The position numbers and the translations under genes were made by a program. Under the pieces are notes generated by a model. It was not told the DNA's origin. It saw only the letters and a program-made list of their open reading frames with translations, and ran no database searches. 33,259 bases of DNA from an uncultured Acidobacteriia bacterium (lineage in GTDB: Bacteria; Acidobacteriota; Terriglobia; Bryobacterales; Bryobacteraceae), in contig CAINNJ010000037.1 in assembly GCA_903851195.1 (NCBI GenBank), forward strand, positions 1-33,259, read 5' to 3'. Shown one piece after another: positions 5,872 to 29,427 of the stretch (position 1 is its first letter; every line of letters begins with the position of its first letter).

Positions 5872-6402
5872 ATGCCTCATATCGACTTGCTGAACGATCT
5901 GCCGGGTATCCGCGGGCTCTTGCAGTTCCGTCCCGAGACGGCCAAACCGATCAACGACCTGGTAAACGTTCTGCTGCACCACGCCAACTCACTCTCGATG
6001 GGCGAGCGTGAGTTGATCGCTACCTACGTTTCCGCGCGCAACGATTGCCACTTCTGCCAGACCATTCACGGCGCCATCGCGGCGCACCATCTCGCCGGCG
6101 ACGAAGACCTGGTGCGCAGCGTCAAACAAGATTTCGGTCAAGCGCCGATTTCGGACAAGCTGAAAGCGTTGCTCGCCATCGCCGGGCAGGTGCAGCAGGG
6201 CGGCAAGCAGGTTACCGCGGAAGCCATCGAAAGTGCGCGAAAAGAAGGAGCGACTGACCTCGAAATTCACGACACCGTGCTCATTGCCGCCGTGTTTTGC
6301 ATGTGCAACCGGTACGTGGATGGACTCGCCACATGGGCCCCCGAGAGTCCCGAATATTACCGGGAGCGGGCGCCGAATGTGGCGGCCAATGGGTACTTCT
6401 AG
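5872..6402 (+). CDS. AhpD-like / carboxymuconolactone decarboxylase-family protein (CMD1)
   Basis: A 176-residue all-helical thiol redox protein, or peroxidase-related enzyme, of the CMD/AhpD superfamily. It has the AhpD-type catalytic pattern E-x11-C-x2-C-x3-H within ERELIATYVSARNDC and the following HFCQTIH. In AhpD these residues carry out peroxide reduction through the CxxC pair, with Glu and His as a proton relay. The start ATG begins MPHIDLLNDLPGIRG, a head shared by all copies here; GAGGGA lies upstream. The C-terminal half shares EIHDTVLIAAVFCM and NRYVDGLATWAP with the other copies. It is followed after 3 nt by MFS1, so the two are probably translationally coupled. The true substrate is unknown; gamma-carboxymuconolactone decarboxylation is unlikely given the CxxC motif. 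Confidence 0.9.
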   Translation: MPHIDLLNDLPGIRGLLQFRPETAKPINDLVNVLLHHANSLSMGERELIATYVSARNDCHFCQTIHGAIAAHHLAGDEDLVRSVKQDFGQAPISDKLKALLAIAGQVQQGGKQVTAEAIESARKEGATDLEIHDTVLIAAVFCMCNRYVDGLATWAPESPEYYRERAPNVAANGYF

Positions 6403-6405
6403 CGT

Positions 6406-7653
6406 ATGACTCCGGCGACGAAGCCCAGGTCCGCGTGGCTGGTGGTGGTGGCCGCATTCTTTGGCGTGATGGCCGGATTCGGCTCGCTCGTGGTCTTCAC
6501 CTTCTCGGTTTTTCTCAAGCCCGTGGGCACGGAGTTTGGATGGAGCCGGGAGGCAGTCTCGAGCGCCTTCGGTTTCGCCGCGCTTTCAGTCGCCATCGCT
6601 TCGCCCAAACTGGGGCAACTTCTGGACCGTCTGGGTCCACGCCGCGTAATCATTCCGTGTTACACGATCTACGGCCTGGCGCTGGGCTCCCTCGCCTTTC
6701 TCACGCCGCAGATCTGGCAGTTTTACTTGACATTCGTGGTCATCGGCCTGGTGGGCAATGCCACCACGCAGATGGGGTATTCACGGGCCGTTTCCACGTG
6801 GTTCGATGAACATCGCGGGCTGGCGCTCGCGCTGGTGATGTCGGGTACGGGCGTGGGCTCTATCGTACTTCCGGCCGCGGCACAGTGGATGATCGAAGTA
6901 GAAGGCTGGCGCAACGCTTACCTGACCCTGGGAGCCGTTTCCCTGGTCTGCGGCATTCCCCTCACCGTGATCTTCGTGCGCGAGCGGCCGACCACTCGCG
7001 CCGCGGAGCGGGCGACCGCGACGGCCAGTGTCACCACCGGCGACGGCCTGCGGTCGCGCGCCTTCTGGACGCTGGTCGCGATCCTGTTTCTGAATTCCAT
7101 CAGCGTGAATGGAGCGATCACCCACCTCTCTCCCCTGCTCACCGACCGCGGGATCTCCGGACGAGAGGCCGCTCTCGCGCTCTCGGTCCTGGGAGCGGCC
7201 AGCCTAGCCGGGCGCCTGTTGACAGGACTGCTGCTCGACCGGTTTTTCGGCCCGCGCGTGTCGTTCGTCCTGCTGCTTGGGGTGGCCGCCGGAATTCAAC
7301 TGCTGTCCACCGCGCACACACCGGTAACGGCCGTTGCGGCAGCGGCGCTGATCGGTTTCGGCCTGGGTGGTGAAGCGGATATTACGCCCTACCTCCTGAC
7401 TCGCTATTTCGGACTCCGCTCGTTTTCCACGCTCTACGGATTCACCTGGACCGCGTACGCGATCGCGGGCGCCATCGGCCCCGTGGTAATGGGACGTGCC
7501 TTCGACCTGACCGGCTCATACGCGTTGTTTCTTTCCGTGCTCGCCGTCAGCGGGCTGATTTCGGCTATCTTGATGCTCACTATGCCAGCTTACGACCGTG
7601 GGGTTCCCCGAATAGCGGTGGCCATGGTGGCCACCTGCGCTGAGGAGATTTAA
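6406..7653 (+). CDS. Major facilitator superfamily transporter (MFS1)
   Basis: A 415-residue inner-membrane protein with about 12 hydrophobic helices. The N-terminal half has the MFS motif A-like loop between helices 2 and 3 (GQLLDRLGPRRVI). The second half has the matching loop GLLLDRFFGPRVS. It looks like the monocarboxylate/oxalate-formate-type MFS group with the FGWSR signature after helix 1. The substrate cannot be assigned. It starts 3 nt after the CMD1 stop and ends 1 nt before the DUF3179 start, so all three are probably one transcript. A close homologue of identical predicted length (MFS2) lies on the minus strand near 23 kb, also next to a CMD gene. Confidence 0.92.
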   Translation: MTPATKPRSAWLVVVAAFFGVMAGFGSLVVFTFSVFLKPVGTEFGWSREAVSSAFGFAALSVAIASPKLGQLLDRLGPRRVIIPCYTIYGLALGSLAFLTPQIWQFYLTFVVIGLVGNATTQMGYSRAVSTWFDEHRGLALALVMSGTGVGSIVLPAAAQWMIEVEGWRNAYLTLGAVSLVCGIPLTVIFVRERPTTRAAERATATASVTTGDGLRSRAFWTLVAILFLNSISVNGAITHLSPLLTDRGISGREAALALSVLGAASLAGRLLTGLLLDRFFGPRVSFVLLLGVAAGIQLLSTAHTPVTAVAAAALIGFGLGGEADITPYLLTRYFGLRSFSTLYGFTWTAYAIAGAIGPVVMGRAFDLTGSYALFLSVLAVSGLISAILMLTMPAYDRGVPRIAVAMVATCAEEI

Positions 7654-7654
7654 A

Positions 7655-8890
7655 TTGAAGACGTCTACGCCGCGCACCGGCGCCTATTCGCTGCTGATCG
7701 CCGCCAGTCTGCTGGCTGCGCTGTTCTGCCTGATCTATCCCATCTACGTCATTCGGCCGTTCCGCGCACAGGGCGTGCGGGAGTTGGCCGCTGCTCTGGT
7801 GGTGATGCGCTTCCGCCCCTTCGCGGTGGCTGTGTGCGTGCTCGCCGCGATCTTTTCGATGGTGCGTTACTGGCGGCTGCAACCGCGGCGTTGGCGCCGC
7901 GCGGGTGCCGTAACGGGCACACTCACGGTCTGCGCGGCCGCCGCTCTGACGCGCATTAATGTGTATGAGCTGATGTTTCATCCCCTGGGTGCACCCAGCT
8001 TTGAAACCGCGGCGGAAACAAAACTCGACAAGGACGAAAAAGTAATTGCCGTCCAGGTGAATGGCGCCGCCCGCGCCTACCCGATTCGCGGCATGTCCTA
8101 TCACCATATCGTCAATGACGTGGTGGGGGGCGTCCCCATCGTCGCCACGTATTGAACGCTCTGTCACACCGGTCTGGTGTGGAGACGCGATGTGGAGGGC
8201 TTGAAGTTGACCTTCCACCTGGCGGGAATTAACAATCAGAACTTCCTCATGCGGGATGAGGAGACCGGTACGTTCTGGCAGCAGATCAGTGGCGCTGCCG
8301 TCTCCGGACCACTGAAGGGAAAAAAACTGGTACTGGTGCATTCCGACGAGCTCACACTCCAGCTTTGGAAAACCGAGCAGCCTGCCGGCACGGTGGTAAA
8401 AGACGCCGCGCTTTACACCGCGGAATATGCTCGGAAGGATTGGGATGTGCAGATGGCCAAGGCGCCAACGGTCATCCGTTATGCGCAGGCTGGAATGACC
8501 CAGCGCACTATCGTTATGGGCATTCGGGCGTTTGGGACGTCGCGCGCCTATCCGTACGATCTGCTTCTGGCGGAGAAACTGGTCAAGGACCGGCTGGGCG
8601 GCGTGCCGATTGTGATCGTCGTCGGTCCCGACGGACAATCGGTGCGCGCCTTCCGCGCCGCGGTGCCCGGCTCCAGCGCCGAGCCGGACTTTTATCGGAT
8701 GTCGGATAGCGGCGCCATGATGATGGACGATGCTACCGGCAGTCGTTGGAATTTCCAGGGATGCGCCGTCGAAGGCAAAGCCCTGGGAGCGTGCCTGACC
8801 CGCGTGGACATCATCAAAGACTATTGGTTCGACTGGCGGCACTACAACGCCGACACCTCGGTGTTCGCAAGAGGGCAACCTCCCCACTAG
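7655..8890 (+). CDS. DUF3179 membrane-anchored protein, probable selenoprotein (Sec at codon 167)
   Basis: Read through an in-frame TGA at 8153-8155 this gives 411 residues. Three hydrophobic helices (about 11-33, 55-72, 83-99) are followed by a DUF3179 domain. The positive loop between helices 2 and 3 suggests that the domain faces the periplasm. The family's usual TYCPLC-like motif is here ATY-U-TLCHTGLVW: the TGA sits exactly at the first cysteine, giving U167-x2-C170. Codons on both sides are in one frame, and family features continue past the TGA (NNQNFLMRDEETGTFWQQ, a second lobe RAYPYDLLL...GGVPIVIVV repeating the first lobe, a final WFDWRHYNADT). A SECIS-like hairpin follows at once. 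The start is TTG, preceded by GAGGAG. It follows MFS1 after 1 nt. The biochemical role of DUF3179 is unknown to me; the U-x-x-C suggests thiol/selenol redox chemistry. The alternative is a nonsense mutation or sequencing error of TGC/TGT. Confidence 0.85.
8156..8187 (+). promoter_or_regulatory. Predicted bacterial SECIS element in the DUF3179 mRNA
   Basis: Directly after the TGA, CACACC (8165-8170) pairs perfectly with GGTGTG (8176-8181) around the 5-nt loop GGTCT. The stem extends by CGCTC (8157-8161) pairing with GAG (8182-8184) and CG (8186-8187), with a 5'-side bulge TGT and a bulged A. The loop GGUCU equals the core of the E. coli fdhF SECIS apical loop, where the G and U are bound by SelB. 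The apical loop starts 16 nt after the TGA, close to the spacing in known bacterial elements. All of it is in translated sequence, as expected for bacteria. Confidence 0.8.
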
Positions 8891-8941: not shown

Positions 8942-11900
8942 ATGAGAGGACTGGGATTGGGGCTGGTATTCGCACTTTGCAGTGCGGCCTTCGCACAAGA
9001 AACTACCGCGGTGCTGGAGGGCCAAATTACGGATGCGTCCGGAGGCGTCATTAGCGGCGCCATCGTGCAAGCCGTGAACGGGAAGACTGGTTACCGGCGT
9101 TCCCAGACCACTACGTCGGTGGGAGCGTATCACTTCGCGCTGCCCATTGGCGAATATGAATTGCGCGTTTCCACGGCGGGTTTCGCGGAACACCTGCAGA
9201 CCGGCATTCCCTTGAATGTGGGCCAGACCGCGCGTCTCGACATTCAGCTTCGCCTGGCCAAAGAGAAAGACGCCGTGACCGTGACGGCGGAAGTGCTGTT
9301 GGTGGACGCGGGCTCCAACGTCATTGGAGACGTAGTGACCGGCCGGCAACTGGTGGAACTTCCGCTTAACGGCCGGAACTTCACCCAGTTGGGTCTGCTC
9401 CAGCCCGGCGTGGCCCCCCTTACCCAAGGCGTGGCCACGGCGGGAGGCTCGCTCCGCGGAGGCCAGGCCTATGCGGTGAATGGCCAACGGCCGGAGTCCA
9501 ATTCGTATCTACTGGATGGCGTTTCCAATGTGAACCGCGTGGATGGCGGTTACGCGCTGAAGACGCCGGTGGATGCGATTTCTGAATTCCGCATTCTCAC
9601 CGGGACCGCACCGGCCGAATACGGCGGCACCAGCGGAGCCACCACTACCGTGGTCACGCGGGCCGGCAGCAACCAGTTCCACGGCAACGTGTACGAGTTC
9701 TTGCGCAATGACCATCTGGATGCCCGCAACTTCCTGGCCACCGCGGTGGAGCCCCTGAAGCAAAATCAGTTTGGCGTCACCATCGGCGGGCCTGTCCGGA
9801 AGAACAAGGACTTCTTCTTCGGCTACTACGAAGGGTTCCGCAACCGCCAGGGCGTCACGCAGAGCGCCACCGTACCCAGCGATGCCGAACGCAACGGCGA
9901 TTTCTCCGGACTGCGCGACCCGCAAACCGGCCAGCCCGCGCCCTTGATCAACTACTTCACCGGGCAGCCGTTCCCCGGCAACCAGGTTCCGGTGCCGGCG
10001 CAGGACCCCGTGGCGCGGAGTCTGGTCAACTTCTATCCGCACGCCAACGCCGGACCCAACCTGTACGTCACCACGCAGACCAAACGCAACACCGCCGACC
10101 AGGGTGGTTTGCGCTTCGATCATTCGTTCAATGAGCGCGACCAACTCGCCTTCCGCTATACGCGCGCGGTGAATTCCGGTGTGGACCCGCTCTCCATTGC
10201 CGGCGCCAATGTTCCAGGCTTCCCCGTGGGCGAAGACATCGGCACGCATAGCGCTACAGTCTCCGAAACTCACCTGTTCAGCGGCACCACTTCCAATGTT
10301 CTTCGCTTCGGCTTCTTTCGCAATGCCTTCGATACCGATAAGCCGCTCAACAAGACTTCGCCGCGCGCGCTCGGTTTCAACTACGACAGTACGCTGGCCG
10401 CCGCCAGCGGACCGCCGTTTCTGATCGTCAGCGGATACGCCAGCATCGGCGACCCGATCACCGGCCCGCGCGATACCGCGCAGAACACCTTCGAGGTGTA
10501 CGAATCGCTCTCGCACGTCGCGGGCGCGCACAGCTTTAAGTTCGGCGGCGAACTGCGGCGCACGCAGATCAATATGTCGGAGGGCATCGCGTCTAACGGC
10601 TTCTTCGTGTTTGCGCCCTTTCCGGCGAGCGATGCATTTGCCAGTTTTCTGCTCGGCTTTCCGGTGGTCTTCTTCCAGGGCGGCGGCGATATGAACCGCG
10701 GCCTGCGCAACCTCGATACCGCCCTTTATGCCCAGGACGAATGGCGCGTCACCCCGCGCCTCACGCTCAATTACGGTCTGCGATGGGAAGTGAGCACACC
10801 GTTCGTCGATATCCGGAACCGCATGAATTCCTGGTCGCCAGGCAAGCAGTCCACGGTCTACCCCAACGCCCCGAAAGGGCTGCTGTTCCCCGGCGACCCA
10901 GGCATTCCCGACGGTATCGCGCCGGTATATTGGAAAGGCCTGATGCCGCGTCTGGGCCTGGCGTGGGATCCCACCGGCTCCGGAAAGACCTCCATTCGCG
11001 CGGCCTATGGAATCTACTACGATTCGTTTACCAACGGCGTCGGCGGCCCGCTGCAGGCCCCGTTGAGCGCGCTTCCTTGGACCCAGGCGCGGCAGTTGTC
11101 GGCGCCCATCAACTTCACCAGCCCCTGGAACGGACAATACCCGTTCGCCGCCAACACCTTTCCCCAGCCCACCACGGTTCTCACTGTCGAGAACGGGATG
11201 CGTCCTCCGTATTCGCAAAACTGGAACTTCTCGATCCAGCGCGCGCTGGCCCCGGACCTGCTCGTTGACCTCCGCTACATCGGAAATAAGGGCACCAGGC
11301 TGCCCCGCATGATCGAAGCCAATCCGGCGATCTACGGCCCCGGCGCAACCTCCGATAACGCCGACCAGCGCCGCCTGTACGCGGGCTGTAGGGGGCCGCA
11401 GGGGCCGTGCGACTTCGCCTCGGTGGGGCTTATCACAGACTCCACCAGTTCCACCTACCATGCCGCGCAGGCGGCCCTCACGCGCCGTTTCCGTCGCGGA
11501 CTGGCCTTCCTGGCTTCCTACACCTTCTCCAAGACGCTGGATTACGTGTCCACGTTTAATGTGGCCGGATCGGCGCCGCGGCTCGTTGCCGGAGAGAACG
11601 ATCTGGCGCAAGATCCGTTCAACCTCAAAGCCGAGCATGGTCCGTCATTGTTCGATGCCCGGCACCGTTTCGTTTTCAGCGGCAGCTACGAGATTCCTCT
11701 TGCCCGCACCCGCTCGGCGGTTGCGAACACGCTGCTTTCCGGCTGGCAGTTGAATACCATCGCGGTGTTCACATCGGGCACACCGTTCACGGTATACGAC
11801 AGTGCGAACGCGGCTCTGCAAGGCAGTTCGCCCGAAATCACGGGCTTCTATTCCAGCCGTCCGGATTCGATTGCGGATCCCAACCAGGGGCCGCATACGC

Positions 11901-12205
11901 CCGACCAGTGGGTGAGCCGCACTGCCTTCTCGCGCCTCAGCCCGGTGACCCGCGCCGGCCAGTTCGGCAGCGAGGGGCGTAATGCGGTGCGCGGCCCCGG
12001 AATGGGGAACGTCGACCTGTCGTTGCTGAAGACATTCGCATTGAGCGAGCGAACCCGCCTCCAGTTCCGCGCCGAGTGTTTCAACATTGCCAACCACGCC
12101 AATTTCGGGCTGCCGGAGAACGACATCGCTTCGCCCAACTTCGGCCGCGTGCTCCAGGCGGGGCCGCCGCGACTGGTGCAATTCGGCTTGAAGCTGGCTT
12201 TCTGA
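8942..12205 (+). CDS. Oar-like TonB-dependent receptor with carboxypeptidase-regulatory-like domain (TonB receptor 1)
   Basis: A 1,087-residue outer-membrane protein. A signal peptide (MRGLGLGLVFALCSAAFAQ) is followed by a carboxypeptidase-regulatory-like beta-sandwich at about 25-110 (LEGQITDASGGVISGA, then YHFALPIGEYELRV). Next come a plug domain (PLNGRNFTQLGLLQPGV, NGQRPESNSYLLDGV) and a long beta-barrel that ends in a C-terminal aromatic (FGLKLAF), as outer-membrane beta-barrels do. This architecture is abundant in Acidobacteria. TonB-dependent receptors import large or scarce ligands such as glycans, metal chelates or cofactors; the ligand here is unknown. The gene has a copy of the shared box upstream and is followed after 3 nt by CMD2, so the receptor and CMD enzyme are probably made together. 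A homologue lies at 24620-27874. Confidence 0.93.
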   Translation: MRGLGLGLVFALCSAAFAQETTAVLEGQITDASGGVISGAIVQAVNGKTGYRRSQTTTSVGAYHFALPIGEYELRVSTAGFAEHLQTGIPLNVGQTARLDIQLRLAKEKDAVTVTAEVLLVDAGSNVIGDVVTGRQLVELPLNGRNFTQLGLLQPGVAPLTQGVATAGGSLRGGQAYAVNGQRPESNSYLLDGVSNVNRVDGGYALKTPVDAISEFRILTGTAPAEYGGTSGATTTVVTRAGSNQFHGNVYEFLRNDHLDARNFLATAVEPLKQNQFGVTIGGPVRKNKDFFFGYYEGFRNRQGVTQSATVPSDAERNGDFSGLRDPQTGQPAPLINYFTGQPFPGNQVPVPAQDPVARSLVNFYPHANAGPNLYVTTQTKRNTADQGGLRFDHSFNERDQLAFRYTRAVNSGVDPLSIAGANVPGFPVGEDIGTHSATVSETHLFSGTTSNVLRFGFFRNAFDTDKPLNKTSPRALGFNYDSTLAAASGPPFLIVSGYASIGDPITGPRDTAQNTFEVYESLSHVAGAHSFKFGGELRRTQINMSEGIASNGFFVFAPFPASDAFASFLLGFPVVFFQGGGDMNRGLRNLDTALYAQDEWRVTPRLTLNYGLRWEVSTPFVDIRNRMNSWSPGKQSTVYPNAPKGLLFPGDPGIPDGIAPVYWKGLMPRLGLAWDPTGSGKTSIRAAYGIYYDSFTNGVGGPLQAPLSALPWTQARQLSAPINFTSPWNGQYPFAANTFPQPTTVLTVENGMRPPYSQNWNFSIQRALAPDLLVDLRYIGNKGTRLPRMIEANPAIYGPGATSDNADQRRLYAGCRGPQGPCDFASVGLITDSTSSTYHAAQAALTRRFRRGLAFLASYTFSKTLDYVSTFNVAGSAPRLVAGENDLAQDPFNLKAEHGPSLFDARHRFVFSGSYEIPLARTRSAVANTLLSGWQLNTIAVFTSGTPFTVYDSANAALQGSSPEITGFYSSRPDSIADPNQGPHTPDQWVSRTAFSRLSPVTRAGQFGSEGRNAVRGPGMGNVDLSLLKTFALSERTRLQFRAECFNIANHANFGLPENDIASPNFGRVLQAGPPRLVQFGLKLAF

Positions 12206-12208
12206 CCC

Positions 12209-12784
12209 ATGCCACACATCACACTGCCCGAAGGGCTGCCCGGAATTCGCGGCCCGTTTGCTTTCCGGCCGGAAACGGCCAAACCGCTCAGCGAGCTTGC
12301 CGAAGTCCTATTGCGCGGGCGCGGCACCCTCGCGCCGGCGGAGAGGGAACTGATCGCGACCTATGTTTCCTCCCAAAACGACTGCCACTACTGCCAGACG
12401 TCTCATGGAGCGATCGCCGCCCATCAACTGGGCGAAAATGAGCAACTGGTCGCGGACGTGAAGCGCGATTTCGAGCAGGCCGGCATTTCAGAAAAGCTGA
12501 AGGCGCTGATCGCCATCGCGGGCAAGGTGCAGCGCGGCGGCAAGAACGTCGAACGCGCCGACATCGAGCGCGCCCGGCAACACGGCGCCACAGATCTGGA
12601 GATTCACGACACCGTGCTGATCGCGGCCGCCTTCTGTATGTACAACCGCTACGTGGACGGCCTGGCGACCGTGGCCCCTCAGGATCCAGCGGGCTACCGG
12701 GAGCGCGCCGTGAAAGTGGCGCGTGACGGCTACCTCTGCGTCCAGCGCGACATCGCCGCATCGCAAGGGACAGGCGGGGACTAG
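12209..12784 (+). CDS. AhpD-like / CMD-family protein (CMD2)
   Basis: A 191-residue paralogue of CMD1. The head is MPHITLPEGLPGIRGPFAF. The AhpD-type pattern E-x11-C-x2-C-x3-H is intact (ERELIATYVSSQNDC, then HYCQTSH). The C-terminal part has EIHDTVLIAAAFCM and NRYVDGLATVAP, with a tail of about 25 extra residues. It begins 3 nt after the TonB receptor 1 stop, with no room for its own promoter, so it is co-transcribed with the receptor. It is probably a thiol-dependent peroxidase or redox enzyme acting on what the receptor brings in, but the substrate is not known. The stop codon overlaps the next copy of the shared box. Confidence 0.92.
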   Translation: MPHITLPEGLPGIRGPFAFRPETAKPLSELAEVLLRGRGTLAPAERELIATYVSSQNDCHYCQTSHGAIAAHQLGENEQLVADVKRDFEQAGISEKLKALIAIAGKVQRGGKNVERADIERARQHGATDLEIHDTVLIAAAFCMYNRYVDGLATVAPQDPAGYRERAVKVARDGYLCVQRDIAASQGTGGD

Positions 12785-22671: not shown

Positions 22672-23919
22672 TTATCCGGGATTCTCAGCTGACTGGGGCG
22701 CAGGATACCGTGGCAGAGCGATCATCAGCAAACCCGCAATCAGCGTGAGGAAGGATAGTTGAATCAACAGTCCTGCATAAGAGCCGGTGGCATCGAAGGC
22801 CCTTCCCAGCAGTATTGACCCTAGCGCCGCAGCGGTCGCGTATGCGGTCCATGTAAAGCCATAAAGCGTGCTCAGACGGCGAAGGCCGAAATCTCGCGCC
22901 AGCATATACGGCGTCACATCCACCTCGCCTCCCATACTGAATCCCAGCAGAGCACCCGCTACCAGACACTCCGCAAGAGTGCGTGAATAAGACAGGAGTA
23001 GCAGACTGAGCGCTGTGATGAACAGGAGGATCATTCCCACTCGCGGTCCGAAGTACCGATCCAGCAGCCATCCGGTAACGAAGCGGCCGATGATTCCGCA
23101 GGCCCCGACGATCGAGGCGCCTAATGCCGCCTGATTGCTGTCAACGCCCTTATCGGAAAGCATCGCTGTGAAATGAGTGACGGTTCCGGTTGTACTCATG
23201 GCCGTCAAAAGCAGCGTGACGGCCAGAATCCAAAACGTCCGGACACGCAAGGCGGCGCTCACCTCCATTCCCGGCAAGGTCCGCGCTGTGTCGACTGCCC
23301 GGGTCCCTGCCCGCTCTTTTACGAACAGTGCAACCAATGGCAAGGCGATAAGCAACGGTGCGGCGCCAAGAATTGCATAAGTCGCCCTCCACCCGAATGC
23401 TGTGATGGCGCCCTGTGTGATGACCGGCACCGCGATGGAGCCGAGACCGGAACCGCCCATGAGCGCCGCGAGAGCTAAGCCTCGATGCAAGGAAAACCAA
23501 GTGGAGATGGTGCGCGCGAATCCCATCTGCGCGGTTGCGTTGCCGACTGCTCCGATCAGAATGAACGTTACGTAAAACCGCACCAGGCTGCCGGAGAGAA
23601 ATGCAAGAGAGCCCAGCGCAATCCCGAATATGGCCACGCACGGCAGAATCACGCGGCGCGGACCATACCTGTCCAGCAGGAGGCCCAGCACCGGTGAACA
23701 GAGGCCTAGTGTGAAAGATGCGCACGCGAAGGCAACGGAGATGGTGGCGCGCGACCAACCGAACTCAACGCCAAGCGGCTTCAACAGGACACCGAAGCTG
23801 TAAACGAGGACGGATCCGAAGCCGGCCATCGCCGCCAGCGCGGACATGATCACCACGCGCCAACCCGGGTAGCGCCAACTCGATTCATCCCATTCGCTTC
23901 GCGTGCTGCTTGACTCCAC
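22672..23919 (-). CDS. Major facilitator superfamily transporter (MFS2)
   Basis: A homologue of MFS1 with about 12 hydrophobic helices. The loops GLLLDRYGPRRVI and GWLLDRYFGPRVG sit at the same places, and FGWSRATIS follows helix 1. The frame stays open to 24051, but I favour the GTG at 23919. It has GTGGAG about 6 nt upstream, gives 415 residues (the same predicted length as MFS1), and leaves a free divergent region holding a copy of the shared box and the CMD3 start. An ATG at 23991 would start inside that region, 7 nt from the CMD3 ATG. The substrate is unknown. It is followed by DUF296 on the same strand. Confidence 0.88.
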   Translation of the reverse strand: MESSSTRSEWDESSWRYPGWRVVIMSALAAMAGFGSVLVYSFGVLLKPLGVEFGWSRATISVAFACASFTLGLCSPVLGLLLDRYGPRRVILPCVAIFGIALGSLAFLSGSLVRFYVTFILIGAVGNATAQMGFARTISTWFSLHRGLALAALMGGSGLGSIAVPVITQGAITAFGWRATYAILGAAPLLIALPLVALFVKERAGTRAVDTARTLPGMEVSAALRVRTFWILAVTLLLTAMSTTGTVTHFTAMLSDKGVDSNQAALGASIVGACGIIGRFVTGWLLDRYFGPRVGMILLFITALSLLLLSYSRTLAECLVAGALLGFSMGGEVDVTPYMLARDFGLRRLSTLYGFTWTAYATAAALGSILLGRAFDATGSYAGLLIQLSFLTLIAGLLMIALPRYPAPQSAENPG

Positions 23920-23996: not shown

Positions 23997-24562
23997 ATGC
24001 CTCACATTCACATCCCCGATGAACTGCCGGGTATTCGCGGCTTAATGGCATTTCGCCCGGAAGCTTCGAAACCCTTGAACGAACTGGTGGACGTCTTACT
24101 GCGTCAGCTCAACTCGCTGACCTCTGCCGAGCGAGAACTGATCGCGACCTTCGTTTCTTCTCGGAACGATTGCCGGTACTGCCAGACCATCCACGGTGCC
24201 ATCGCCGCGCACGACCTCGGCGGCAATGAAGAACTCGTCCTTAACGTGAAGAACGACTTTGAGTCCTCTCCCGTTTCGGCCAAACTGAAGGCGTTGCTCA
24301 GAATCGCCGGCAAGATCCAACAAAGCGGAAAGAGCGTCACCTCCGATGATGTCGAGAACGCCAGGCAGCGGGGCGCCACGGACAATGAGATTCACGACAC
24401 CGTGCTTATCGCGGCCGCCTTTTGCATGTACAACCGCTATGTGACGGCCTCGCTACGGTGGCTCCCGATGATCCCGATTTCTATCGGGCACGCGCAGCGA
24501 AGGTTTGCCGCGATGGCTACTCGCAGGTCAACAAAGAGTTTCAGAACAGGCAGTCCCGCTGA
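23997..24562 (+). pseudogene. AhpD-like / CMD-family gene with a C-terminal frameshift (CMD3)
   Basis: The start MPHIHIPDELPGIRGLMAF and the AhpD-type pattern (ERELIATFVSSRNDC, then RYCQTIH) are intact up to NRYV at about 24443. There the sequence reads GTGACGG where the paralogues need GTGGACGG; one G is missing. Restoring it gives the family tail (DGLATVAPDDPDFYRARA, ending NRQSR) and a stop at 24560-24562. As written the frame runs on to 24602 with an unrelated tail. The catalytic part is whole, so the product might still fold in part. A single-base loss could also be an assembly error. It is transcribed away from MFS2 and has a shared box 44 nt upstream. Confidence 0.8.
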
Positions 24563-28276: not shown

Positions 28277-28837
28277 ATGCCGCACATTTCGCTACCTGAA
28301 GGTCTGCCGGGAATTCTCGGGCCCATGGCTTTTCGTCCCGAGACGGCAAAGCCGTTGAATGAACTGGCCGACGTTCTGCTCCGTGGACCGGGCACGCTGA
28401 CGTCGGGTGAGCGCGAACTGATCGCCACGTACGTCTCATCACAGAACGACTGCTTTTTCTGCCAGACGATTCACGGCGCCGTCGCTGCTCATCACCTTGG
28501 CGGGAACGAACAACTCGTCGTCGACGTGAAGCTGAACCCCTTCGAAGCAAACGTGTCCGACAAGCTGAAAGCCTTGCTCGCAATTGCAGGCAAAGTGCAG
28601 GGCGGCGGGAAGAACGTCACGACCGCAGAGATCGAGCGGGCTCGCGAACACGGCGCCACCGACCTCGAACTTCACGACACCGTGCTGATTGCCGCTGCTT
28701 TTTGCATGTACAACCGGTACGTGGATGGCCTCGCGACATGGGCTCCGACAGACTTTCAGGCCTATCGCGAGTCGGGCGCTCGACTGGCCGAGGAAGGCTA
28801 CCAGGCAACGACGGTCGGACTGGCCGGCGCTCGATAG
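28277..28837 (+). CDS. AhpD-like / CMD-family protein (CMD4)
   Basis: A 186-residue paralogue of CMD1 and CMD2. I start at the ATG at 28277, which has GGAGGA 8 nt upstream and begins MPHISLPEGLPGILG. The frame is open further upstream, but that part holds the shared box and looks non-coding. The AhpD-type pattern is intact (ERELIATYVSSQNDC, then FFCQTIH). There is one extra residue near VKLNPFEANVSDKL compared with the other copies. EIERAREHGATDLELHD and NRYVDGLATWAP follow. CMD5 starts 11 nt after the stop, so the two were a tandem pair. It is probably a thiol-dependent peroxidase-type enzyme; the substrate is unknown. Confidence 0.92.
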   Translation: MPHISLPEGLPGILGPMAFRPETAKPLNELADVLLRGPGTLTSGERELIATYVSSQNDCFFCQTIHGAVAAHHLGGNEQLVVDVKLNPFEANVSDKLKALLAIAGKVQGGGKNVTTAEIERAREHGATDLELHDTVLIAAAFCMYNRYVDGLATWAPTDFQAYRESGARLAEEGYQATTVGLAGAR

Positions 28838-28848
28838 GATTTCCCAAC

Positions 28849-29427
28849 ATGGCACACATCAAACTTCCAGAAGAATTGCCCGGAATTCGCGGACTCTTCG
28901 CGTTTCGTCCCGAAGTGGCGAAGCCCATGTCCGAACTGGCGGAAATATTGCTACACACCCAGGGATCGCTCTCGATGGGTGAGCGGGAACTGATCGCGAC
29001 GTACGTTTCGGCGCGGAACGATTGCCACTACTGCCAGACGTCGCACGGCGCAATCGCCGCTCACCATCTCGGCGGGGAGGAGCAACTGGTGCTTGAGGTG
29101 AAACGCGATTTCGAGAAAGCCGAGATATCGGACAAACTCAAAGCGCTGATCAACATCGCAGGCTAGGTCCAGCAGAGCGGCAAACTGGTCGGCAGAAGGA
29201 CGTCGAGCGGGCTCGCAATCTCGGCGCTACCGAGTTCGAGATCCACGACACGGTGCTCATCGCAGCGGCTTTCTGCATGTACAACCGATATGTCGACGGT
29301 CTCGCGACGTGGGCACCGGAGGACCTGGAATCATATCGCCAGCGAGCGGCGACCGTCGCTGAGAAAGGCTATCTGGGCATCCCGGCGGCGGTTGCGGCGC
29401 AGGCGGCTAGCACGAGGAGCGAGTAGC
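28849..29427 (+). pseudogene. AhpD-like / CMD-family gene broken by a nonsense codon and a frameshift (CMD5)
   Basis: The first 105 codons are a normal CMD copy (MAHIKLPEELPGIRGLFAF; ERELIATYVSARNDC, then HYCQTSH). A TAG at 29164-29166 stands where the paralogues have a lysine (IAGKVQ). Some 25 nt on, near 29190-29205, the frame shifts. After that the family sequence returns in another frame (DVERARNLGATEFEIHD, then NRYVDGLATWAP) and ends at a TAG at 29425-29427. Two separate lesions make a true pseudogene more likely than a single error. It follows CMD4 by 11 nt. Confidence 0.85.

What the first reader, a model, noticed from the sequence alone, without database searches (positions are those of the whole stretch)
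7655..8890. DUF3179 gene with TGA at the catalytic-type cysteine: probable selenoprotein
Seen: a TGA at 8153-8155 splits one continuous reading frame. It lies where DUF3179 proteins carry the first Cys of TYCxLC, giving ATY-U-TLC. The following 32 nt fold into a long stem with the apical loop GGTCT. Known: the E. coli fdhF SECIS has AGGUCU in its loop, and U-x-x-C motifs are typical of redox selenoproteins. An ordinary annotation would split it into two hypothetical genes or call it a pseudogene. The second lobe of the protein repeats the first and is intact, which argues against decay. I cannot tell if Sec-containing DUF3179 proteins have already been catalogued.
Basis: partly seen in the sequence, partly recalled or inferred. 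Interest (0 to 1): 0.93.

Follow-up and report, generated by a model that had tools for sequence, protein, structure and literature searches.

The report
Selenocysteine-containing DUF3179 membrane protein gene
A bacterium of the acidobacterial phylum appears to read a UGA 'stop' codon as the rare amino acid selenocysteine in a membrane-anchored protein of unknown function; the protein family was already listed as a selenoprotein family, but its spread in this phylum and its likely fold add something new.

Summary
The gene 7655-8890 is one DUF3179 frame (PF11376, 207.9 bits) with a single in-frame TGA at 8153-8155. The genome holds tRNA-Sec(UCA), selA, selB and selD. Of 104 close homologous stretches, window included, 97 have TGA at this column and 7 TGC. 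Synonymous positions of the hairpin CACACC-GGTCT-GGTGTG are frozen in the TGA forms only (GGT 96/97 versus 0/7). Of the sampled genomes, 19 of 19 with the TGA form have selA over cut-off, 0 of 6 with the Cys form. A different, covarying hairpin serves distant TGA-bearing DUF3179 genes. The family is not new as a selenoprotein: two reviews list it (UxxC/T), citing a 2007 study. Not found in the papers searched: its wide occurrence in Acidobacteriota, the apparent Sec-to-Cys reversions, and the fold. The model shows three membrane helices and two duplicated lobes, probably Rieske-like but without iron-sulphur ligands, with U-x-x-C in lobe 1 only. Function is inferred, not shown: probably a periplasmic selenol/thiol oxidoreductase.

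The parts
7642..7647 (+). GAGGAG, probable ribosome-binding site seven bases before TTG 7655
   Evidence: letters; inference
7655..8890 (+). DUF3179 selenoprotein gene, 411 codons with TGA as Sec, stop TAG
7676..7948 (+). three long helices, read as membrane helices (residues 8-32, 41-75, 79-98); the R-rich stretch between the second and third suggests a periplasmic C-terminal domain
   Evidence: AlphaFold2 model, pLDDT 96.8; membrane and topology are inference from the letters
7988..8389 (+). lobe 1 (residues 112-245), carries U167-x-x-C170-H171
8153..8155 (+). TGA codon read as selenocysteine (U167)
8162..8164 (+). codon of C170, the possible resolving cysteine of U-x-x-C
8165..8181 (+). SECIS upper hairpin: arms CACACC (8165-8170) and GGTGTG (8176-8181), apical loop GGTCT (8171-8175); 15 nt between TGA and loop
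8438..8869 (+). lobe 2 (residues 262-405), duplicate of lobe 1 without U-x-x-C; matches a Rieske profile
5872..6402 (+). CMD/AhpD-like protein (TIGR01926, PF02627), possibly same transcript (not tested)
6406..7653 (+). MFS transporter, ends one base before the DUF3179 start
8942..12205 (+). outer membrane beta-barrel protein with plug and CarboxypepD_reg domains; ends with an ordinary TGA stop
12209..12784 (+). second CMD/AhpD-like protein

Best explanation
The gene encodes a selenoprotein of the DUF3179 family. Supported by comparison: the genome has what is needed to insert selenocysteine at UGA 8153-8155 (tRNA-Sec, SelA, SelD, SelB), and a hairpin just after the UGA, conserved as RNA rather than only as protein, fits the SECIS that SelB binds. 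Predicted: three membrane helices and two duplicated beta lobes. Inferred: the lobes face the periplasm, and U167 with C170 in lobe 1 forms a selenol/thiol redox pair (reversible Se-S bond) acting on a substrate not yet known; lobe 2 is structural or binds a partner. In lineages that lost the Sec machinery the UGA became a Cys codon and the synonymous hairpin positions drifted.
For: Machinery: tRNA-Sec 69 bits, anticodon tca; selB 347 bits; selA 491 bits; selD 356 bits, itself with a U in KAAGUASKL (15, 80). Recoding: in 297 genomes of the phylum 60 of 139 DUF3179 matches carry exactly one TGA and none a TAA or TAG (counted by eye). Of 182 distinct aligned stretches 137 have U at this column and 39 C (24). 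Further TGAs in the 104 subfamily rows lie at the C-terminal end, residues 406-411, where they look like ordinary stops (24 of 25; the other is at residue 4). SECIS: top-codon share of residues 171-175 is 0.94-1.00 in 97 Sec forms; GGT 96/97 versus 0/7, CAC 96/97 versus 2/7 in Cys forms. Three sequences with a compensatory CG-to-GC change; in the distant Sec class 92.5% of cells pair and 0 of 1000 shuffles reach this, versus 47.1% in 30 distinct Cys forms. Co-occurrence: selA over cut-off in 19 of 19 subfamily Sec genomes and 0 of 6 Cys genomes of the sample; none of these 6 has selB over cut-off. TGA ends the next gene (12203-12205).
Against: No protein or selenium measurement. UGA-to-loop spacing is 15 nt as I count it; the published model says 16-37. 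The 50-nt fold prefers another structure. Hairpin energy alone does not discriminate: 5 of 7 and 26 of 32 Cys forms also reach -7.5, and the 7 close Cys forms still pair at 83.7% in the upper stem. The distant Cys forms show a weak pairing signal (26 of 1000 shuffles reach it; 69). Three of 46 genomes with a TGA form show no selA over cut-off: G046 and G140 have selB over cut-off, G080 (75% complete) neither. The two same-family genomes in the sample, G187 and G289, have no DUF3179, no selA match and no selB over cut-off. One of 104 homologues, L104, has an in-frame TAG near residue 120. Rows are related, so Fisher tests overstate independence. Redox function and periplasmic side are inference; C170 is not universal (88 of 95).
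Confidence: 0.95

Rival explanations
1. Pseudogene or sequencing error: the TGA is a chance stop and the frame is decaying.
For: By standard code the frame splits into ORFs of 166 and 237 aa.
Against: TGA at the same column in 97 of 104 close stretches; of 139 matches in the phylum 60 have one TGA and none TAA or TAG; frame conserved on both sides; synonymous sites frozen.
Confidence: 0.01
2. UGA is read as another residue (suppression or changed code), or a regulated truncation is the product.
For: A regulated stop could also conserve a downstream RNA structure.
Against: The non-Sec forms of the subfamily have Cys at the column; the TGA form tracks with selA and selB; TGA ends the next gene and, by position, homologues of this gene; residues after the TGA are conserved as protein.
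Confidence: 0.03
3. The Sec protein is made, but Y-U-x-x-C-H is a metal-binding or peroxidase site rather than a thiol-disulphide exchange site.
For: H171 is in 73 of 95 rows and H150 in 91 of 95; some Sec forms lack the second Cys, so an Se-S bond cannot be universal; AhpD-like genes occur in the stretches of 8 of 104 subfamily loci, window included.
Against: I recognised no metal-specific gene among the commonest neighbour clusters; nothing tested directly.
Confidence: 0.35

Closest known systems
DUF3179 selenoprotein family (PF11376, UxxC/T), listed in PMC9312934 and PMC13188914, citing Zhang and Gladyshev 2007 on the Olavius algarvensis deltaproteobacterial symbiont
   Same: Same Pfam family and same U-x-x-C motif.
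   Different: This one is acidobacterial with three predicted membrane helices; the word Acidobacteri does not occur in the main text of either review. The 2007 paper is not held, so its sequences could not be compared.
E. coli fdhF SECIS (recalled, from no call)
   Same: A G-G-U-C-U apical loop just after the UGA.
   Different: Here the loop seems nearer to the UGA, and the lower stem is not conserved.
Rieske [2Fe-2S] domain (PF00355)
   Same: 39 of the first 50 Foldseek hits of lobe 1 are Rieske-domain proteins by my reading of their titles (probability 0.57-1.00); lobe 2 matches a Rieske profile at 90.3%.
   Different: The CxH...CxxH cluster ligands are missing; no Foldseek E-value is below 0.03; by the profile alignments U-x-x-C falls in a strand-turn-strand part, not in a cluster loop (my reading).

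Membership tests
DUF3179 (PF11376) | Match over the curated cut-off (27 bits) | tested here: met
   207.9 bits, residues 113-401 of 411
Bacterial selenoprotein | In-frame UGA with Cys or Sec homologues at the same column | tested here: met
   137 U and 39 C of 182
Bacterial selenoprotein | selA, selB, selC and selD in the genome | tested here: met
Bacterial selenoprotein | Selenium shown in the protein | not testable with these tools
   needs 75Se labelling or mass spectrometry
bSECIS model (passage of PMC13188914) | 3-9 nt loop with G in its first two bases, 4-16 bp upper stem, energy at most -7.5 | tested here: met
   loop GGUCU, 6-7 bp, -7.7 for the 17-mer and -16.4 for 39 nt; bSECISearch itself was not run
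bSECIS model (passage of PMC13188914) | 16-37 nt between UGA and apical loop | tested here: inconclusive
   15 nt lie between them (8156-8170); one short, or met if counted as a distance
Rieske protein | Rieske fold | tested here: inconclusive
   structure search (best E 0.034 and 0.051); lobe 2 by profile 90.3%; lobe 1 by profile 0.8%
Rieske protein | CxH...CxxH [2Fe-2S] ligands | tested here: not met
   no such pattern among the conserved residues of 95 sequences

The most novel reading that the evidence does not exclude
DUF3179 is a duplicated Rieske-type fold that lost its iron-sulphur cluster in both lobes and gained a selenocysteine/cysteine redox site in one of them: a redox scaffold that swapped a metal cluster for a selenol. 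It uses at least two unlike SECIS hairpins in different subfamilies and is a widespread selenoprotein of Acidobacteriota.
Probability: 0.5. Interest if true: 0.6.

Novelty: new member of a known kind. Interest (0 to 1): 0.45.

Why it matters
By the standard code such a gene reads as two fragments, and no NCBIfam model catches it, so it is easily lost in annotation. In the 297 sampled genomes of the phylum 46 carry a TGA form. The fold hypothesis gives a family of unknown function a testable redox role, and the Sec-to-Cys reversions paired with absence of selA and selB are a natural experiment on why bacteria keep or drop selenocysteine.

Tried and rejected
A conserved operon partner: none found. 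Among 104 subfamily loci (75 with at least 2.5 kb on both sides) the commonest neighbour cluster is in 17 loci, a pilin-type gene upstream (my reading of its letters); a HAD-type gene (my reading) is downstream in 15. CMD/AhpD-like genes occur in 8 and the MFS transporter in 6 of 104, window included; both kinds are common in such genomes, and no background rate was measured.

A solved relative by sequence: none significant (profile, best E 0.092; Rieske domains of biphenyl dioxygenase at 0.17). Lobe 1 against the Rieske profile gave 0.8%, and single own-genome Rieske sequences gave at most 4.9%, so lobe 1 as Rieske-like rests on structure and on its kinship with lobe 2. Controls for the lobe 2 match: reversed lobe 0.4% (68), two unrelated families at most 0.2%, 60 column shuffles at most 0.6% (84). 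The control profiles used 14 and 12 of 30 loci each (those with one open frame), the Rieske profile 33 of 35.

Pfam scan of the 95 rows of A1 at E up to 10: no Rieske model among the 25 of 99 families shown.

A script meant to read SelD picked the wrong frame (76); done correctly. A tree script stopped at saving (44); the tree is.

Rows dropped: A1 holds 95 of 115 stretches chosen under 72% identity from 182; the tree holds 181 of 182 (one under 140 aa). Some of the 182 are the same gene fetched twice (for example L038 and L138). The reading pieces were cut at TAA and TAG before alignment, so could not show these codons at the column; that none of the 104 is cut there was checked.

Full report
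Observation. The frame 7655-8890 is open from a TTG behind GAGGAG to a TAG, broken once by TGA at 8153-8155. It matches DUF3179 at 207.9 bits over residues 113-401, on both sides of the TGA. NCBIfam has no model that matches it at E 0.001.

Machinery. The window lies in a 7.72-Mb genome, 99.66% complete. It holds tRNA-Sec over the gathering score (69 versus 47 bits), confirmed by ARAGORN with anticodon tca, selB (347 bits, cut-off 242), selA (491, cut-off 268) and selD (356, cut-off 125). selD itself has one TGA, in KAAGUASKL.

Homologues. In 297 genomes of the same phylum 91 have a DUF3179 match; 60 of 139 matches (counted by eye, and again from the per-genome totals) carry one TGA and none a TAA or TAG. 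A scan of named genomes kept the best 80 of 116 relatives; by my reading all 80 titles name acidobacterial taxa. Its search peptides did not include the U site. With 80 fetched stretches and the other loci held, I aligned 182 distinct stretches: U 137, C 39, N 2, H 2, D 1, gap 1. The 104 in the window's subfamily (phmmer 260 bits or more, one per locus) are 97 TGA and 7 TGC. None of the 104 is cut by TAA or TAG at this column; one, L104, has a TAG near residue 120.

SECIS. In the 97 Sec forms the codons after the TGA are frozen at synonymous positions: CAC 96, ACC 91, GGT 96, CTG 93, GTG 95. In the 7 Cys forms: 2, 2, 0, 6, 4. Residues outside 168-175 that are at least 90% conserved show top-codon shares from 0.33 to 0.92. 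The frozen stretch is the hairpin CACACC-GGTCT-GGTGTG, 8165-8181. In 97 Sec forms its upper stem pairs in 98.5% of cells (shuffles 97.5% on average, 0 of 1000 as high; slid versions at most 55.8%), with a compensatory CG-to-GC change in three related sequences; the Cys forms, held by the coded residues, still pair at 83.7%. The lower stem is not conserved. The 40 more distant Sec stretches (38 distinct) have another hairpin at about the same place, for example CGGGCGT-CGTGT-ACGCCCG; 92.5% of its cells pair, with 16 further pair types, 0 of 1000 shuffles reach this, slid versions reach at most 46.2%, and the same columns in 30 distinct Cys forms pair at 47.1% (shuffles 42.8%, 26 of 1000 as high). 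So the family uses two unlike hairpins.

Machinery follows the codon. Of 46 genomes with a TGA form 43 have selA over cut-off (judged by E-value, read), against 148 of the other 251 (Fisher p 1.4e-6). Of the three exceptions two have selB over cut-off and the third is 75% complete. In the window's subfamily selA is over cut-off in 19 of 19 Sec genomes and 0 of 6 Cys genomes of this sample (p 5.6e-6; related genomes, so this overstates the evidence). The seventh Cys form, L103, and the named genomes were not tested for selA. On the tree the six Cys rows form one group (support 100) and L103 stands apart, both nested among Sec rows, which suggests at least two Sec-to-Cys changes (quick tree, root at the midpoint).

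Structure. The AlphaFold2 model has mean pLDDT 96.8 and pTM 0.93: helices 8-32, 41-75 and 79-98, then two beta lobes. The R-rich stretch between helices 2 and 3 suggests a periplasmic C-terminal domain (inference). The lobes are duplicates (hhalign 99.7%); U-x-x-C is only in lobe 1. Foldseek of the whole model ranks a Rieske ferredoxin first (3gce, E 0.034, probability 1.00; no E below 0.001). With lobe 1 alone 39 of the first 50 hits are Rieske-domain proteins by my reading of their titles (probability 0.57-1.00, TM by target up to 0.59), but no E-value is below 0.05. Lobe 2 matches a 33-sequence Rieske profile at 90.3%, E 1.5e-6, with controls at most 0.6%. The cluster ligands are absent. 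I take the Rieske-like fold as likely, not proved.

Literature. Two reviews list DUF3179 as a selenoprotein family with UxxC/T (tables seen as passages: PMC9312934; PMC13188914), citing Zhang and Gladyshev 2007 (reference lists), which is not held. The word Acidobacteri is in neither main text. That Acidobacteria have selenoproteins is long known: a 2006 study counts 3 families and 4 selenoproteins there (PMC1794560, passages; no mention of DUF3179). Only three held papers contain the word DUF3179 and two the Pfam number. The third, PMC9230427, lists a DUF3179 protein of Idiomarina as a cytoplasmic-membrane protein (passage). Searches for Acidobacteri with selenoprotein and selenocysteine (16 papers, listing; passages of two read) and for Rieske with selenocysteine and fold (10 of 30 listed) brought no paper on acidobacterial Sec-DUF3179 or a Rieske-like DUF3179. 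Most subscription papers and all bioRxiv preprints are outside this library. deep-Sep (PMC12013277, passages) counts three known selenoprotein genes in the acidobacterium Occallatibacter riparius, not named in the passages I saw.

Verdict. In all likelihood a genuine selenoprotein, a new member of a catalogued family. Its interest lies in its spread in Acidobacteriota, its two hairpin types and the fold hypothesis.

Noticed in passing
window 5872-6402, 12209-12784, about 23997-24515, 28277-28804, 28849-29375: Five CMD/AhpD-like copies in one window; the last is split over two frames. The first stands in a row CMD-MFS-DUF3179, and the same row occurs in L197, a Cys form.
   Followed up: partly
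window 22687-23883: A second MFS transporter similar to the one upstream of DUF3179, on the other strand beside another CMD copy.
   Followed up: no
L020 (own genome C23:19353-20273): selD is itself a TGA-bearing form, KAAGUASKL.
   Followed up: yes
L092, L105, L113, L128 and others (17 loci): In these loci the DUF3179 gene follows a pilin-like gene; 9 of the 17 also have a HAD-type gene downstream (both names are my reading of letters).
   Followed up: partly
G026 contig C362, 7892-8662 and 9579-9809: A Rieske-domain match lies about 0.9 kb from a TGA-bearing DUF3179 match.
   Followed up: no
G046 and G140: TGA-bearing DUF3179 and selB over cut-off but no selA match; selA may be missing from the assembly or diverged.
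   Followed up: no
L104 position 564-566: In-frame TAG near residue 120 of a DUF3179 homologue whose near relatives L100 and L108 are open there: pseudogene or assembly error.
   Followed up: no
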